Positions 7,087-44,467 of a stretch of 64,000 nt of DNA are shown piece by piece (within the stretch, counting starts at the first letter, position 1; each line of letters starts with the position of its first letter). This DNA comes from Acidilobaceae archaeon (GTDB lineage: Archaea > Thermoproteota > Thermoprotei_A > Sulfolobales > Acidilobaceae): assembly GCA_027014125.1 (NCBI GenBank), contig JALWEI010000029.1:1-64000 (forward strand), given 5' to 3'. Position numbers and translations under genes: made by a program. The notes under the pieces are model-generated. The model had not been told where the DNA came from, did not search any database, and saw only the letters and a list, made by a program, of their open reading frames with translations.

Positions 7087-8175
7087 CTATCCCCCAGCAG
7101 CACTTGCTAGTATACCTGCGACCCTGCCCAGCTCTGGTAGCAGGTGTGGCATCACCGCCATCCTAACTCCCCTGCCCTCCAGGCACCTGTAGGCTTTATA
7201 GCCCATCTCCCCTAGCCTCTCGAACACCTTGTCGTGGCGGGGGTGTATAAGGCATAGTATAGGGGTTTCCACACTGTGCGGTGTCCTGTAGCCGTGGGGT
7301 CCTAGCCTCGACACTAGCTCCAGGGCCGCGTCCATGAGCTCGGTTGCCAGCCTCTCCACGCCGTACTCGACTAGCTTTGAGAGGGCGTAGGCCGCTGCTA
7401 TAACAGGGCCCCCGTTCCTGGTCCCCAGCACCCCGAACTGGCGGCCTGAGGGTATGTAGGGCGCCTTGTGGTATAGGAGATCTATAATGTCCTTGTCGCT
7501 GGCTAGTAGCAGGCCCACTCCCGCGGGCGCCTCGGGGACCTTGTGCATATCCATAACTATACTTGTAACTGCTCCTCCCAGGCTCCTTGGCGCCTTGCCC
7601 TCGCCTAGGTACCGCATTATGGGTCCTGTGAAGGCCGCGTCGACGTGGACAACAGCGCCCCGGGCCCCGGCGAGCTCCGCTATCTCAACCACCGGGTCAA
7701 TATACCCGGTCTCGGTGGTGCCTACCGTAGCAACAACTATATCACCCTCCCCTAGCCTAGACCTCAGCTCGCCTAGGAGCGGCTCATAGCCCCCTGCTAC
7801 GGGGAGCGGCTCAGCCCTCATACCAAGTATCCTAGCCGACTTCGGTATGGAGTAGTGAGCCGACTGGAAGTAGAGGACCCTACGATACCCCATCTCCCGG
7901 AGCGCATAAAGAGCCAGCAGATTCCCCTCGCTCGCCCCGCTAGTCACCCAGCCAGGGTACTCCCTGCCAAACACTACTAGGCTTGCAGTCGACACTATGT
8001 AGCTAGCCGCCTCCCTCGAGGCCGTGTAAGACTCGGGGTCACCCATATTCTGCCAGGAGTAAAGACGGCAAACCTCCAACACATCCGGCGGCGGCCTAGG
8101 AGTCATACCCCCCAGAACCCTATCGCCCCTCGCCCTGACCGCCAGCCTATCCAGCAGCTCTCTAGGCCTCAACAC
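7087..8175 (-). CDS. mfnA: PLP-dependent tyrosine/aspartate decarboxylase (MfnA family)
   Basis: 362 residues. Residues 150-182 (TVGTTETGYIDPV, then HVDAAF) and the MDMHK motif with the PLP-binding Lys212 are those of group II decarboxylases. In archaea MfnA either makes tyramine for methanofuran or β-alanine from aspartate for coenzyme A. A crenarchaeon needs no methanofuran, so aspartate 1-decarboxylase is the likelier role (inference). The start overlaps no other gene and has a TATA-like element and an operator-like repeat upstream (8238-8264). Confidence 0.85.
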   Translation of the reverse strand: MLRPRELLDRLAVRARGDRVLGGMTPRPPPDVLEVCRLYSWQNMGDPESYTASREAASYIVSTASLVVFGREYPGWVTSGASEGNLLALYALREMGYRRVLYFQSAHYSIPKSARILGMRAEPLPVAGGYEPLLGELRSRLGEGDIVVATVGTTETGYIDPVVEIAELAGARGAVVHVDAAFTGPIMRYLGEGKAPRSLGGAVTSIVMDMHKVPEAPAGVGLLLASDKDIIDLLYHKAPYIPSGRQFGVLGTRNGGPVIAAAYALSKLVEYGVERLATELMDAALELVSRLGPHGYRTPHSVETPILCLIHPRHDKVFERLGEMGYKAYRCLEGRGVRMAVMPHLLPELGRVAGILASAAGG

Positions 8176-8237: not shown

Positions 8238-8264
8238 AGCTAATACAACATTAGCTTAAAAACT
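8238..8264 (-). promoter_or_regulatory. mfnA promoter with perfect inverted repeat
   Basis: AGCTAAT (8238-8244) and ATTAGCT (8250-8256) are perfect inverted repeats with a 5-bp spacer. On the minus strand the TATA-like AGTTTTTAAGCT lies at 8253-8264, so the repeat sits just after the TATA box and before the expected start, a classic repressor position. The rest of 8176-8315 holds no gene that I can see. Confidence 0.5.
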
Positions 8265-8315
8265 ATAGGCGTGACAATGTAAGGCTTGCTAAGATACCCT
8301 CGATTTAGCATATCC

Positions 8316-8858
8316 TCAACAATCCAGAAGCCACTTCAAGCTTTGGATGTATGCTTGGAAATCATGCTCCTCTATGAGCCTTGAGAACGTAAATCCTCGC
8401 ATTTTCGGTATCTTCTCAAGTAATCTCTTCTCGTACCTAACTCCCAGTGTGGTCTCTATAAATCTGATAGCGCCCTTTCCAGACCTACATATGGCCCTGT
8501 GGCCCCCAAGACCTAGGCAAACCCACGCTTCGTGGAGTGGTTCTACGACAGCAACGCGAAAGTGTTCCTTAACTCTTTTTTGGATGTGAGATAATACGTC
8601 CTGCCTGGAAGCCTCCTCTGGCGCTCTACCTTCAGAATCGATTACAACTAATATCTTCCAGTTATTAGGTGCTTTAGCCAAAGCTATGCCGACAAGCTTT
8701 CTATAGAGAGCCTGATTACACTTTTTAGCTGGCATCCTCCTGATCCTAGGACGGCTATTACATAAGATACCCGTATCTATAAGCCACGATATAAGCTCGT
8801 CGTGGAATCTAACACCATACGTATCCTCCACAGCAACTATACGCAGACTGTAACTCAA
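8316..8858 (-). CDS. TOPRIM-like partner of AAA/ABC ATPase (RloB/DUF4276-like)
   Basis: 180 residues from ATG 8858, overlapping the ATPase stop by 4 bp (ATGA). It has an early Glu in AVEDTYG (E11), an acidic pair in VVIDSEG (D74, E76) and EPLHEAW (E110). This E...DxE...E-AW pattern is that of the small TOPRIM-like partners (RloB, DUF4276, DUF3226) encoded after OLD-type or RloA-type ATPases. In known systems such as PARIS and OLD/Gabija-like modules the ATPase senses a phage trigger and the TOPRIM protein cuts nucleic acid. The DNA is AT-rich compared with its flanks. Exact family is inference. Confidence 0.6.
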   Translation of the reverse strand: MSYSLRIVAVEDTYGVRFHDELISWLIDTGILCNSRPRIRRMPAKKCNQALYRKLVGIALAKAPNNWKILVVIDSEGRAPEEASRQDVLSHIQKRVKEHFRVAVVEPLHEAWVCLGLGGHRAICRSGKGAIRFIETTLGVRYEKRLLEKIPKMRGFTFSRLIEEHDFQAYIQSLKWLLDC

Positions 8859-10402
8859 TCTTTACCTGTCACCCCATAAATATAGTCACTAAAAGTAATA
8901 CCGTGCTCTGCTAAAGATTTTCTAAGTCTCGCCGGATCTTTTATCCTCTCAACCACTGCTCCGTCTCTTTCAGGCAAGACTACAATAGTCCTTTCGGGCC
9001 CGACAATATCAACGGGAATAGGACTGTGTGTAGCTGCTATAACGGGAACTGGTAACTGATTCAATTCGTCGATAATGATTTCCAGTAGACTAGCATGCAG
9101 GCTGTTCTCTATCTCATCTATAAGTAATAAACTAGGGCCTAACTCAATAGCTGCTCCTATTGCCAGTGTTTTTATTAGGCCATCTGGAAGGTTTGGAGGA
9201 GGCATCTCTATACCTCTCCATTCTGACATCAATACAACGCGCCCAAACTTTGAGTCTACCCAAACCCTGAATTCCGGAAACGCCTTTGAGATGAGTTCTT
9301 CGAGCCTCTCTGGCATACGACCGAGCCTGCCATGAAGGGTTAAGAGAACCTCTGCGAGATTCTGAGCCCTTGGATTCAATCTATTGCTTCCAGTAAATGG
9401 TCTAGGCTCGCGAAGAGCACCCGCATCGGGATGCCGCAAAAATACAATTTTTCGGATAGCATCAAATAGTAATAATATAGCAAGTGAGGGATCGAGGTAA
9501 TCTACCCTACCAAGTAAAAAGTTTAACAACATATTGTCCCGTGAAACAGGTATTCCCTTGGCTTCTTCTAAGCACCCAGTAAAGGGTTTCAACACGACGG
9601 GTATTTTAACATCCAAGAGGGGAAACCTTAATAAGCTAACTATATAAGATGATTTGTTGTCGTCTTTCTTCTTAATTGAATGGTCGACAACACGAAAATC
9701 TGATTCATATACGGATGTTATAACCCCTGGATGAAGAAAAACAGATGTTGTTCTTTTTTGCTCTATATTATATGTAAGTATAACTTTATTTGATTTTTCA
9801 ATTATTGATGATGCACTATTAAGGCCAGGCTTGCCAGATGCCTCCCAGAATTCTTTATTAATCATAATTTCAACAAAATTAATATTTATTTTTAAAGATA
9901 AATAATTACTTATTAGAAAATTATACTCGATTGGTAAAACCGTATCCCGCTGTGTATCATATCCAAATACCACAGATCCTTCTATTGTCTCGTGACACCA
10001 TTTATCATCTTCACTATTAGATGAGAAATATACGTTTAATGTTATACCTATTTCTATGTTTTTACTTGGGTCTTTATCATGTATAAGATCTAATCCACTC
10101 CAATATTCAGGAACATGAGGCCGATAAGGAGTCTTTTCGGCAGCATCTATTAACGCCTTATACAGGAAATACATTGCTTCTAGAATACTAGTTTTTCCAC
10201 TTGCATTAGGACCTACTAAAATATTTACACCAGGCAATAGAGTAATGTTTGTTTCTTTTATATTTTTAAAATTTTTTATTTTTATTTTTGAAATCATATA
10301 TAATGGCCTTGTTTTCCTTCTCTTTGAGACTCCATGCCTGGCCTTAGTCTTTCGCATAGCTAACCCCGTATCTATAATACCCACACGAAGCGTTAAGGGC
10401 AT
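8855..10402 (-). CDS. ABC-type AAA ATPase (AAA_15/AAA_21, OLD/RloA-like)
   Basis: 515 residues from ATG 10402; an internal ATG at 10297 (residue 36, MISKIKIKNF) matches the usual start of this family and would give 480. Walker A GPNASGKT is at residues 64-71, a signature-like LPDGLIKTL, Walker B LLLIDEIENS and ATHSP H-loop come near the C-terminus, with a variable, Lys/Ile/Asn-rich middle. These are SMC/OLD-like ATPases. Codon use is AT-rich, unlike neighbours, which suggests recent transfer. It forms a two-gene unit with the TOPRIM-like gene by 4-bp overlap; a defence role is inferred. The 35 leading residues are arginine/lysine-rich and may or may not be translated. Confidence 0.8.
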   Translation of the reverse strand: MPLTLRVGIIDTGLAMRKTKARHGVSKRRKTRPLYMISKIKIKNFKNIKETNITLLPGVNILVGPNASGKTSILEAMYFLYKALIDAAEKTPYRPHVPEYWSGLDLIHDKDPSKNIEIGITLNVYFSSNSEDDKWCHETIEGSVVFGYDTQRDTVLPIEYNFLISNYLSLKININFVEIMINKEFWEASGKPGLNSASSIIEKSNKVILTYNIEQKRTTSVFLHPGVITSVYESDFRVVDHSIKKKDDNKSSYIVSLLRFPLLDVKIPVVLKPFTGCLEEAKGIPVSRDNMLLNFLLGRVDYLDPSLAILLLFDAIRKIVFLRHPDAGALREPRPFTGSNRLNPRAQNLAEVLLTLHGRLGRMPERLEELISKAFPEFRVWVDSKFGRVVLMSEWRGIEMPPPNLPDGLIKTLAIGAAIELGPSLLLIDEIENSLHASLLEIIIDELNQLPVPVIAATHSPIPVDIVGPERTIVVLPERDGAVVERIKDPARLRKSLAEHGITFSDYIYGVTGKD

Positions 10403-10507
10403 TAATGGCTGCTAGACAGCCTGATATCTAGTCTTTATCCACATGTTAGCGTCACAACCAGAATTTTTATTATTATTTATAATTTAATTATAAAAATTAA
10501 GGTTTAG
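10403..10507 (-). promoter_or_regulatory. AT-rich promoter region of the ATPase-TOPRIM pair
   Basis: Positions 10466-10502 are almost pure A/T and on the minus strand include TTATAATTAAATTATAAAT, several overlapping TATA-like elements about 60-70 bp before the ATG at 10402. This AT stretch also follows the stop of the nuo operon and may terminate it through a T-run on the minus strand. Confidence 0.45.
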
Positions 10508-11929
10508 TTATATTAGGCTTAGGAGGGCTGGGGCTAGGAGTCCTAGTGCCATTGTTAGGAGTGACGCTAGTATGATTGCTGCCTTTAGCTCGTCGCTTAT
10601 GATCTTCTCTTCCCCGCTGCCCGTGAGGACCTCTCTGAGGATCCTGATGTAGTATGCCGAACTTATGCCGCTATTCACTAGGGCTATTAGTACGAGTAGC
10701 ATGCTGTAGCTTGCTGCTGCTATGAATATGTAGAGCTTGCCCCAGAAGCCTAGCAGTGGTGGTAGGCCTAGGAGGCTTAGTAGTAGTACTGCTACCCCTA
10801 TCCCGGCGGCTTTGCTGCTTCCTGCTAGCCCCCTCCAATCGTCTAGGTCCTGGCCCGCCTCGGGGGCTAGGCTGAATAGGGGTGCCTTTGATAGGCCGTA
10901 TGCTAGTGATTGTATTGCTATTCCTGCCAGTGCTAGGCCTGCTAGGCTTGGGTTCACCGTGTTTAGGTATGCCAGGGCTGCTAGGCCTGCTAGTATGTAG
11001 CCCACGTGTGCTATGCTGCTGTAGGCTAGTATTGCTTGCACGCTCTTGGGGGTGAGTGCTGCTATGTTGCCGTAGGTCATTGTTGCTATGCTAGCTACAG
11101 CCAGGGTTCCTGCTAGTAGTGTGCCGCCTGCTAGCGTCTCGAAGCCGAAGGGCTGCTGTGAGGCCTGGTATATTATCCTTGTTAGGAGTGCTATGAATCC
11201 TATCTTAATGGGGCCTGCCACCAGTGCAACCGCCCTGCCGTGGGCCTTGGAGTAGACGCTTGGTAGCCACCAGTGGAAGGGGACTAGGCCTAGCTTGAAG
11301 CCTAGGGCTGCTAGTATGAGGCTCACTGCCAGGCCTGATGCTGTGCCTTTCATGGCTGGGGCTATGTCTAGGGGTTGTATTCCTAGGTCCGCCGCTGATA
11401 CTGCCTGGCTTGCCACCCAGAGGCCTAGGAGTAGTGTCGCCACTGCGCCCATGTATATGTACCTGACCGCTGCCTTGCTGCTCTCTTTATCGTCTGGGAG
11501 TGCTATGATGACGTAGCTTATCACCGATACTAGTAGCCAGGCTGCTAGGACTACCAGTGCGTCCATTGCTCCTGCTAGGAAGAAGACGCCGAAGAGTGAT
11601 AGGGGTAGGAGGCTATAGTATGCTGGGTGCGTGGTCCACAGGGCTGGCTCGCGGGCTGCCGCTAGCAGCGTCACCACCGCTACTACGCCGGAGCTGAGGA
11701 CCATCATGGCCGAGAAGCTGTCGTGGACGACCAGCCCGTCGTAGTACTCCACTAGGGTGCCCCGGGCCTCGGCTACCAGTAGGAGCGCTCCTGCAAGGTA
11801 CGCAGCTACCCCTGCTAGGGAGATTGCTATCGCGGGCCGTGCCCCTACCTCCTCCCTCGAGGCTATGAGTGGCACTAGGAGGGAGGAGGCGAGGGTCGCA
11901 TACATTAGGTATAGTACTGCCTCCACCAT
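10508..11929 (-). CDS. nuoN: Complex I proton-pumping subunit NuoN
   Basis: 473 residues, about 14 hydrophobic helices, the antiporter-like fold. FHWWLPSVYSKAHG holds the Lys/His-containing channel segment of NuoN/M/L proteins. The size and position at the end of the operon fit NuoN (ND2) rather than NuoM or NuoL. It pumps protons (or sodium) across the cell membrane as part of the eleven-subunit complex. It follows nuoL by 3 bp. Confidence 0.85.
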   Translation of the reverse strand: MVEAVLYLMYATLASSLLVPLIASREEVGARPAIAISLAGVAAYLAGALLLVAEARGTLVEYYDGLVVHDSFSAMMVLSSGVVAVVTLLAAAREPALWTTHPAYYSLLPLSLFGVFFLAGAMDALVVLAAWLLVSVISYVIIALPDDKESSKAAVRYIYMGAVATLLLGLWVASQAVSAADLGIQPLDIAPAMKGTASGLAVSLILAALGFKLGLVPFHWWLPSVYSKAHGRAVALVAGPIKIGFIALLTRIIYQASQQPFGFETLAGGTLLAGTLAVASIATMTYGNIAALTPKSVQAILAYSSIAHVGYILAGLAALAYLNTVNPSLAGLALAGIAIQSLAYGLSKAPLFSLAPEAGQDLDDWRGLAGSSKAAGIGVAVLLLSLLGLPPLLGFWGKLYIFIAAASYSMLLVLIALVNSGISSAYYIRILREVLTGSGEEKIISDELKAAIILASLLTMALGLLAPALLSLI

Positions 11930-42709: not shown

Positions 42710-42940
42710 AGGCTGACACCCCTACTATAGCGCCCGCGGGGCTACCGGGTTGGGGTACACCTATAAGGCATCTCCATGCATCAAGTCCAACCGGCCATAT
42801 ACAATACGTACCATATTATGGAGACTCCGGTATACTACTAATCATTAATATAGGATTTTTAATACTAAATTTTAAAATACAACGCCTCGTATATTGTACC
42901 ATAATATGATACTATACCGGGCTCCGTGCTGGTGGCTTGT
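42710..42940. promoter_or_regulatory. AT-rich intergenic promoter region
   Basis: 231 bp without a gene. 42838-42912 is strongly AT-rich with TATA-like TTTTAAAAT (42872-42880) and ATAATATGATACTATA (42900-42915). The motif TACCATA followed by TTAT/ATAT occurs twice (near 42810 and 42897) and CCGGTATA near 42830 is inverted as TATACCGG near 42913; both could be protein sites for the surface-protein gene. Confidence 0.4.
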
Positions 42941-44467
42941 ATGGAACCCAGTGGCAAGGAGAAGAGGAGTATAATAGCTGCAATTGGACTGGCTACCCTA
43001 GCGGTTTTACTGGTGGCAATGCAACTCAATCATAGCCTAGGGTATGTTAAGTTTAAGCTGGTACTCTACGATGATGAAGGTAGGCCTATAACAAATGCTC
43101 TGGGTATGCCTACTGTGCCTGAGGGTATTAGGTTATATGCCCAGGTCTATGCTATTGCACCGCCGGGCCACGACGAGGTTATGGTCGAAATATACAAAGG
43201 CTGGGTTAGTGGACTTACATTGACGCTGGAGGCTAGGGACACGCTTAGATGGATAGCAGGTGAGTGGGCCCGCCTGGAGACGGGTAGGGGTATAGAGCCC
43301 GGGTACACCGCTACGAGCCTCGAACTAAACCTGTGGGTGGTGCATGAGGAGACTGGTAGTGTAATCCAGAGAGTCAGCTACTTCTACCCATACGATCCAC
43401 ACAGGCTCCTGGAGGGGGAGAGCTGGGAGTACACGGTTAAAGTAATGCTTCCCCCCGTAGAGAATAGTGCGCCAGGACCGCGGAGTTCACAGATAGAGCC
43501 CCGGCCGGGTTGCATCATGTACTATACGTGGAGGATTAACTCCACGACTACCCCCGAGGCCGGCTCCACGACGTTCAGCACCGATACAAGGAGATTCGAT
43601 AATATATTATATATCAAGACTCCTATACTATTGGTCTATAACAAGCTACCTATATCGGGTAGGATAGGCTCGGCCATAGGTCTAGGCATGGGTGGAGTGA
43701 CCGAGTTCAAGGCATCAGTGGGCATTGGGCCGGGTATCTATGTGAAGCTTAGGAGCGGCGATGCGACGGGCGGTTTGAGTGGGAAGGTGTATCTAGGTGG
43801 CGTATCTAGGAGCCTGTCTGTGAGCTCCTTCTGGAGCCCGGGTTCTGTAGAGGGTGGTGAGTGGGCTTACGTGTGGATATGGACAAGGCCCGTTATGGTA
43901 TTCTACAACGAGTATCTTACCCTCGACTGTGAGGGGGACGTTGTAGAGAGTTATACTGGCGTGGATAAGGTTGTGTTCTTCGTGCAGGATGCTATGACCC
44001 TCTATAAGGGTGTAGCGGACGGGAGGAAGTTGTATAGCCTCCTTGGCGGGGAGTCCCGTGGCGGGCCTCCTTGGCATGTTAGGTGGTTGTTTGACGATAA
44101 TCTATCTAGCTATAGGTATGTGATCGGCCTTAAGCCTGGCGTGGGTCATAGCTTTGGACTAATCCTATCTATGGTTGATGAGTGCAAGGCTGACTTTGAG
44201 GTGCCTCTCGGGCTGGCCGCTGCATCCCTCCTATCAACGGTTGGTATGCATGAGTTTGCCCGGCTTGCGGTTTTGATGCCTCCCTCTATGTCGTATGGGA
44301 GCTCAGCGGCTGTGTACGTTGATGGTGGAGTGCAGAATAAGGGGCCTGTATACGAGTACCTGTACCTTAGGGTCTCTAATATGCTATATTCAAAGGATCC
44401 GCCGTGGTGGCCCTCGGATACTTGCTACTACCAGGTACCTGTGGCTATGTATATAGAGTCTAGGTAG
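42941..44467 (+). CDS. Membrane-anchored extracellular protein, unknown
   Basis: About 508 residues from ATG 42941; a GTG at 42926 is also in frame. Residues 9-30 (KRSIIAAIGLATLAVLLVAMQ) form a membrane anchor or signal helix with basic residues before it; the rest is β-rich, full of Tyr, Trp, Gly, Ser and Thr, as expected of an archaeal surface protein. No family recognised. Base composition is more A+T than the neighbourhood. A second orphan gene follows in the same direction 51 bp later. Confidence 0.6.
   Translation: MEPSGKEKRSIIAAIGLATLAVLLVAMQLNHSLGYVKFKLVLYDDEGRPITNALGMPTVPEGIRLYAQVYAIAPPGHDEVMVEIYKGWVSGLTLTLEARDTLRWIAGEWARLETGRGIEPGYTATSLELNLWVVHEETGSVIQRVSYFYPYDPHRLLEGESWEYTVKVMLPPVENSAPGPRSSQIEPRPGCIMYYTWRINSTTTPEAGSTTFSTDTRRFDNILYIKTPILLVYNKLPISGRIGSAIGLGMGGVTEFKASVGIGPGIYVKLRSGDATGGLSGKVYLGGVSRSLSVSSFWSPGSVEGGEWAYVWIWTRPVMVFYNEYLTLDCEGDVVESYTGVDKVVFFVQDAMTLYKGVADGRKLYSLLGGESRGGPPWHVRWLFDDNLSSYRYVIGLKPGVGHSFGLILSMVDECKADFEVPLGLAAASLLSTVGMHEFARLAVLMPPSMSYGSSAAVYVDGGVQNKGPVYEYLYLRVSNMLYSKDPPWWPSDTCYYQVPVAMYIESR

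What the first reader, a model, noticed from the sequence alone, without database searches (positions are those of the whole stretch)
8316..10402. AT-rich two-gene ATPase-TOPRIM island, candidate defence system
An SMC/OLD-like ATPase and a small TOPRIM-like protein overlap by ATGA and lie in a patch that is far richer in A+T than its neighbours, between a metabolic gene and the nuo operon. The layout resembles PARIS/RloAB/OLD-type systems. The small partner keeps E11, D74/E76 and E110.
Basis: partly seen in the sequence, partly recalled or inferred. Interest (0 to 1): 0.65.

Follow-up and report, generated by a model that had tools for sequence, protein, structure and literature searches.

The report
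Mobile archaeal ATPase–TOPRIM nuclease pair
A heat-loving archaeon carries a compact, horizontally exchanged two-gene cassette (a sensor-type ATPase plus a probable TOPRIM nuclease) that looks like an antiviral "suicide switch" related to known bacterial systems, but no experiment has yet shown what it does.

Summary
Window 8263-10465 is an A+T-rich insert (minimum 29.8% GC; window mean 56.8%) holding an OLD/SMC-type ABC ATPase and a 180-aa protein; the overlap is TTGA, not ATGA. Both are under purifying selection (dN/dS 0.13 and 0.07). The site is variable: one congener keeps the pair, a nearer one (flanks 93-98% identical) carries an unrelated ORF, and eleven relatives have the flanking genes 70-220 bp apart. 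The pair is patchy in Thermoproteota (33/214 genomes of the order), the ATPase lies directly upstream in 45 of 47 loci, and its tree ignores taxonomy: a horizontally moving two-gene module. A 38-sequence profile of the small protein keeps E11, D74xE76, E110 and adds YxK (Y142, K144), the residue order of two-metal TOPRIM nucleases. It is related to RloB/DUF4276/HEC-01B/MAD4 proteins, not to PARIS AriB (DUF4435). A fold could not be modelled with the sequences allowed (pLDDT 36), so TOPRIM rests on profiles and motifs. Best reading: an archaeal branch of the ATPase-plus-RloB/DUF4276 abortive-infection systems, with the ATPase as sensor and the small protein as nuclease effector. Defence itself is inferred.

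The parts
8263..10465 (.). Variable insert (cargo) between the nuoN-like and PLP-decarboxylase genes
   Evidence: G000 vs G001 DNA identity is 93-98% on both sides and unrelated between about 10466 and 8263; GC 0.400
8855..10402 (-). ABC/OLD-type ATPase, 481-500 aa (ORF 515 aa; likely start about 10357 or 10300); proposed sensor
   Evidence: AAA_21 2.4e-20, AAA_15 2.1e-19; AriA 3.6e-23, HEC-01A 2.3e-21, mad3 7e-18; Walker A, DxExE Walker B region, THSP switch kept; dN/dS 0.13
8316..8858 (-). 180-aa TOPRIM-like protein, TTG start, proposed nuclease effector; E11, D74, E76, E110, Y142, K144
   Evidence: mad4 in 22/38 members, HEC-01B 13/38, RloB 10/38 (best 2e-8), DUF4276 5/38; hhalign to a DUF4276-like protein, prob. 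97, E 5e-11 over 158 columns; dN/dS 0.07
8855..8858 (-). TTGA overlap of the two genes
   Evidence: sequence; same arrangement in G002
10403..10507 (-). A+T-rich intergenic stretch upstream of the ATPase, plausible promoter (TATA-like TTTATAATTAAATTATAAAT)
   Evidence: sequence only
7087..8175 (-). Left flank: PLP-dependent decarboxylase-like gene, next to nuoN in relatives without the insert
   Evidence: PF00282 9.5e-10
10508..11929 (-). Right flank: nuoN-like gene
   Evidence: PF00361 3.3e-30

Best explanation
A horizontally exchanged two-gene immune cassette of hyperthermophilic archaea. Shown: strict pairing, mobility, purifying selection, conserved ATPase motifs and a conserved acidic constellation. 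Inferred: the ATPase forms the sensor scaffold and holds the small TOPRIM-like protein inactive; a viral or plasmid cue that alters the ATPase cycle activates or releases it; the small protein then uses E11, D74, E76 and E110, with K144 as the basic residue, to bind two metal ions and nick nucleic acid, stopping growth and so replication of the invader. RNA (tRNA) is as likely a substrate as DNA. It works like PARIS or AbiL, but belongs to the RloB/DUF4276/HEC-01/MAD3-4 branch.
For: ATPase directly upstream in 45 of 47 loci, the two exceptions being weak matches in unrelated ORFs. Patchy: 33/214 genomes of the order (21/118 high-quality), 27/398 of a phylum sample. Site: pair in G000 and G002, unrelated ORF in G001, empty in eleven relatives. 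ATPase tree scatters families, and one 100%-supported clade mixes four of them. Small protein related to MAD4, HEC-01B, AbiLii, RloB, DUF4276; ATPase to AriA, HEC-01A, AbiLi, mad3. Residue order E..DxE..E..K matches E377, D431/D433, E480, R487 of TsOLD and E400, D455/D457, E508, K562 of BpOLD (PMC7049728). dN/dS 0.07 and 0.13. Decayed copies fit a costly, dispensable module. PIN, PaREP1, MazE, HEPN, integrase, resolvase and CARF/Csm6 genes lie beside some copies.
Against: No functional data. The only archaeal OLD ATPase-nuclease reported, Cran1, is a cell-cycle protein with no detectable antiviral effect (PMC12796447). The window copy is not in a defence island; its neighbours are metabolic. 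The window protein alone gives only weak family hits (HEC-01B 7.6e-4, RloB 0.09). No structural model (pLDDT 36). Neighbour enrichment was not tested against a control set.
Confidence: 0.6

Rival explanations
1. A selfish toxin-antitoxin (addiction) module: the small protein is a constitutively toxic nuclease neutralised by the ATPase, kept because loss is costly rather than because it stops viruses.
For: Two-gene overlapping operon, mobility, and TA-type genes (PIN, MazE, PaREP1) beside some copies. In G050 the ATPase is intact and the small gene carries a stop, as expected of toxin loss.
Against: In G082 the ATPase is broken while the small gene is open, which a strict toxin-antitoxin pair should not survive. 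In PARIS, deletion of either gene was non-toxic (PMC9122126). ATPase motifs and the acidic residues are both conserved.
Confidence: 0.18
2. A housekeeping DNA-maintenance or cell-cycle ATPase-nuclease, like Cran1 of Saccharolobus, that happens to be split.
For: Cran1 (OLD class 5) in the same order is essential and not antiviral (PMC12796447). Low dN/dS here.
Against: Cran1 is one fused gene inherited with the species tree; this pair is absent from most genomes, differs between close relatives at one site, and its tree contradicts taxonomy.
Confidence: 0.07
3. Cargo or remnant of a mobile element with a role in that element's own maintenance or competition, not host defence.
For: A+T-rich insert; an integrase or resolvase lies near two other copies.
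Against: No tRNA target and no direct or inverted repeats at the window borders; no relative of the small protein in IMG/VR, phage or plasmid collections; purifying selection on both genes at a fixed site.
Confidence: 0.1

Closest known systems
HEC-01 (Hma-embedded candidate 01; PADLOC HEC-01A/HEC-01B)
   Same: Two genes, OLD-type ATPase plus small RloB/DUF4276-like protein; HEC-01A models match all 30 ATPases tested and HEC-01B 13 of 38 small proteins.
   Different: Small-protein matches are weak (best 9e-7; window 7.6e-4); the archaeal clade has its own motifs (VEDxYG, CN, HEAWxC, YxK).
MAD3-MAD4 of the methylation-associated defence system
   Same: mad4 is the commonest hit of the small proteins (22/38, best 1.5e-8); mad3 hits 28/30 ATPases.
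   Different: Far under the NCBIfam MAD4 cut-off (15 vs 160 bits for the window protein); no other MADS genes beside the window pair.
AbiL and RloA-RloB
   Same: ATPase plus RloB-like protein; AbiLii hits 4/38, Pfam RloB 10/38.
   Different: Window protein under the RloB cut-off (13.4 vs 31.5 bits); no RloB match at all in 147 genomes of the class; no type I restriction locus here.
PARIS (AriA-AriB; class 4 OLD)
   Same: Separate OLD-ABC ATPase and TOPRIM nuclease genes side by side; AriA is the window ATPase's best PADLOC hit. Useful model for mechanism.
   Different: AriB is DUF4435; no DUF4435 match in 38 homologues. Classes 3 and 4 were reported as bacterial only (PMC12796447).
Class 1/2 OLD nucleases, GajA, Cran1
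   Same: ABC ATPase with TOPRIM nuclease and the same order of catalytic residues (PMC7049728).
   Different: One fused polypeptide; hhalign of the small-protein profile to archaeal OLD TOPRIM domains is not significant (template of only 3 sequences).

Membership tests
PARIS | ATPase with AAA_15/AAA_21 over threshold (32/27 bits; rule in PMC9122126) | tested here: met
   AAA_21 74.3 bits, AAA_15 70.8 bits
PARIS | adjacent DUF4435 (PF14491) protein, 27 bits | tested here: not met
   no DUF4435 match at E 0.1 in any of 38 homologues
PARIS | triggered by anti-restriction proteins; tRNA cleavage | not testable with these tools
   needs experiment
HEC-01 | HEC-01A-type ATPase next to HEC-01B-type small protein | tested here: inconclusive
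   HEC-01A strong (2.3e-21); HEC-01B weak for the window (7.6e-4), 13/38 members; PADLOC's own cut-offs not available here
MADS | MAD4 over the NCBIfam cut-off (160 bits) | tested here: not met
   15 bits
MADS | complete multi-gene locus with methyltransferase and further MAD genes | tested here: not met
   flanks are metabolic and respiratory genes
RloAB / AbiL | RloB-like (PF13707) partner over gathering score 31.5 | tested here: not met
   13.4 bits for the window protein; 0 of 147 genomes of the class; divergent homologues reach 2e-8
TOPRIM superfamily | conserved Glu, DxD/E, and later acidic residue in collinear order | tested here: met
   E11, D74xE76, E110 in 38 sequences, order as in OLD nucleases
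TOPRIM superfamily | TOPRIM fold | tested here: inconclusive
   AlphaFold2 with 2 sequences, pLDDT 36; supported only through profile relation to RloB/DUF4276, which I recall as Toprim-like families
Class 1/2 OLD nuclease | ATPase and TOPRIM in one polypeptide | tested here: not met
   two ORFs in all loci
Mobile defence cassette | patchy presence, variable content at one site, tree conflicting with taxonomy | tested here: met
Mobile defence cassette | protects against a virus or plasmid | not testable with these tools
   experiment needed

The most novel reading that the evidence does not exclude
A Thermoproteota-wide clade of split ATPase-TOPRIM abortive-infection systems, under the cut-offs of the Pfam and NCBIfam models tried, whose small nuclease cleaves host tRNA (as AriB does) at high temperature: the first PARIS-like immune logic in hyperthermophilic archaea.
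Probability: 0.25. Interest if true: 0.65.

Novelty: new variant of a known kind. Interest (0 to 1): 0.45.

Why it matters
A 2026 survey finds Thermoproteota poor in known defences other than CRISPR, restriction-modification and argonautes (PMC12988326). A compact, mobile pair present in about 15% of genomes of one order, and scored under cut-off by the Pfam and NCBIfam models, suggests that part of that gap is a detection gap. It also bears on the statement that split-gene OLD systems are restricted to bacteria (PMC12796447); the only archaeal OLD protein studied so far has a cell-cycle role, so this pair is a better candidate for an archaeal OLD-type immune system. Several copies lie in closed, single-contig genomes, so a relative in a cultured strain may be available for tests.

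Tried and rejected
PARIS membership: rejected, no DUF4435. OLD TOPRIM by profile comparison: not significant, shallow template. Target-site duplication or inverted repeats at the insert borders: none above chance. tRNA or Rfam element in the window: none. Viral, phage and plasmid relatives of the small protein: none; ATPase-only matches in IMG/VR lack the small partner. PHROGs: only weak unknowns. PDB by sequence: no meaningful match for the small protein. The G001 alternative cargo has no Pfam or PADLOC match. Literature on HEC-01 itself: not in the library. Selenocysteine or other recoding of the in-frame stops: considered, not supported by anything seen.

Full report
What was checked. The window is bases 1-64000 of a 94-kb contig of a 1.82-Mb archaeal genome (99.8% complete). 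A congener's record is titled 'Desulfurococcales archaeon'. The two ORFs exist as described. The overlap is TTGA rather than ATGA. The ATPase's listed ATG at 10402 is probably too early: in the congener G002 a stop codon lies directly before the position that matches 10357, and most homologues begin near there. The A+T-rich patch is the strongest compositional outlier of the window: 500-bp minimum 0.298 against 0.568 +/- 0.046, with GC3 0.29 (ATPase) and 0.46 (small gene) against 0.59-0.77 in neighbours.

It is an insert at a variable site. In eleven genomes of the family the nuoN-like and decarboxylase-like genes are direct neighbours, 70-220 bp apart between matched ends, including G003 of the same genus (70 bp). 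G002, with flanking synonymous distances of about 0.6, carries the same pair at the same place with synonymous distances of 0.43-0.59, so the pair was probably there in their common ancestor. G001 is nearer still (synonymous distance 0.08-0.17 in the flanks; DNA identity 93-98% on both sides) but has an unrelated 1.2-kb, 43.6%-GC segment instead, and identity collapses abruptly at about 10466 and 8263. The G001 segment carries a 279-codon ORF with an ExK pattern like PD-(D/E)xK nucleases. Its only relative found in the order, in G032, is 342 aa, and its first part resembles an EVE/PUA-like reader by eye; both readings are from sequence inspection, and Pfam and PADLOC give nothing. No repeats or tRNA mark the borders, so the route of insertion is unknown; homologous exchange through the flanks would suffice.

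The pair is a unit. With the small protein alone, 12 of 98 relatives match; with a profile, 33 of 214 genomes of the order and 27 of 398 genomes sampled across the phylum. Of 47 loci inspected, 45 have the ATPase gene immediately upstream, often overlapping; the other two are weak matches in unrelated ORFs. More distant DUF4276-like proteins in two other families of the phylum also have the ATPase next door. Contexts differ from genome to genome (metabolic operons, transporters, PIN/MazE pairs, HEPN, integrase or resolvase, one CARF/Csm6 gene). Neighbour enrichment was not tested against a control set. In the ATPase tree the window's nearest relative after its congener belongs to another family (f7), family f9 falls in three places, and one clade at 100% support mixes f2, f9, f31 and f35: horizontal transfer.

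The genes are under selection, yet dispensable. dN/dS between G000 and G002 is 0.07 (small) and 0.13 (ATPase), in the range of the genes beside them (0.04-0.15). Elsewhere copies decay: in-frame stops in the small gene of G050, G038 and G264, and a broken ATPase in G082. Some breaks in draft genomes could be sequencing or assembly errors, but G082 and G264 are single-contig genomes.

What the proteins are. The ATPase is an OLD/SMC-type ABC ATPase: Walker A, DxExE(N)xxH around Walker B and the THSP switch are kept in nearly all of 30 homologues. Its PADLOC hits (AriA, HEC-01A, AbiLi, mad3, PtuA, GajA) are too promiscuous to place it. The small protein decides membership. Singly it hits HEC-01B at 7.6e-4 and RloB at 0.09. 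Scanning 38 homologues, mad4 matches 22 (best 1.5e-8), HEC-01B 13, RloB 10 (best 2e-8), DUF4276 five (best 1.4e-7), AbiLii four; DUF4435 (AriB) none. A profile alignment to a DUF4276-like archaeal protein is full-length and collinear (probability 97, E 5e-11, 158 columns) and puts E11, D74 and E110 on its acidic positions; three unrelated controls gave probability under 1. Across 38 sequences E11 (E/D), D74 (all), E76 (E/D in 37), E110 (37), Y142 (all) and K144 (37) are kept. This order, Glu - DxD/E - Glu - basic, is that of OLD nucleases, where these residues bind metals A and B and stabilise the transition state (PMC7049728). AlphaFold2 with the two sequences its stated rule clearly allows gave pLDDT 36 and tells nothing. 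The TOPRIM assignment is therefore by profile and motif; that RloB and DUF4276 are Toprim-like families is from my memory.

How it probably works. Shown: a two-component, mobile, selected ATPase plus acidic-motif protein. Inferred from PARIS, in which AriA senses a phage trigger and releases the AriB TOPRIM dimer to cut host tRNA with a two-metal site like that of RNase M5 (PMC12409363): the ATPase holds the small protein, senses an invader-linked cue, and unleashes it. DNA or RNA as substrate cannot be told from sequence. Deletion of either PARIS gene is non-toxic (PMC9122126), and G082 here keeps an open small gene with a broken ATPase, which argues against a strict toxin-antitoxin pair. The main caution is Cran1, the one archaeal OLD protein tested, which is essential and not antiviral (PMC12796447); but Cran1 is fused, conserved in Sulfolobales and follows the species tree, whereas this pair does none of these.

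Verdict. A real, horizontally exchanged archaeal ATPase-TOPRIM-like pair, most likely a defence module and a divergent archaeal branch of the RloB/DUF4276/HEC-01/MAD3-4 kind rather than PARIS. Interesting because such split systems have been described as bacterial and because current models under-call it, but of a known general kind and without functional proof.

Noticed in passing
L042:9518-9520 (G050), L122 about 1076-1078 (G038), L163 about 1684-1686 (G264): All three single in-frame stops seen in small-gene copies fall in the same motif HEAWLC (TGA at W, TGA at C, TAG at W); only about 5% of single-step nonsense changes of the window gene would land there. Pseudogenes most likely; the coincidence is unexplained.
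   Followed up: partly
L115:1817-3120 (G001): Alternative cargo in the same slot: a 43.6%-GC segment with a 279-codon PD-(D/E)xK-looking ORF, apparently frameshifted at its start; a 342-aa relative in G032 (L214) begins with an EVE/PUA-like stretch. Possible single-gene restriction-type enzyme.
   Followed up: partly
L212:1486-3133 (G422) and L211 (G273): DUF4276-like small proteins with the same kind of ATPase upstream in other families of the phylum, linking this clade to a wider group.
   Followed up: partly
L123:2836-4772 (G043): In another genus of the family the pair also lies close to the nuoN gene, separated by a zinc-ribbon gene; the ATPase is split there. Repeated use of the same neighbourhood or chance.
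   Followed up: no
window 42751-43250: The only other stretch of the window with GC under 0.45 (0.444), marginal.
   Followed up: no
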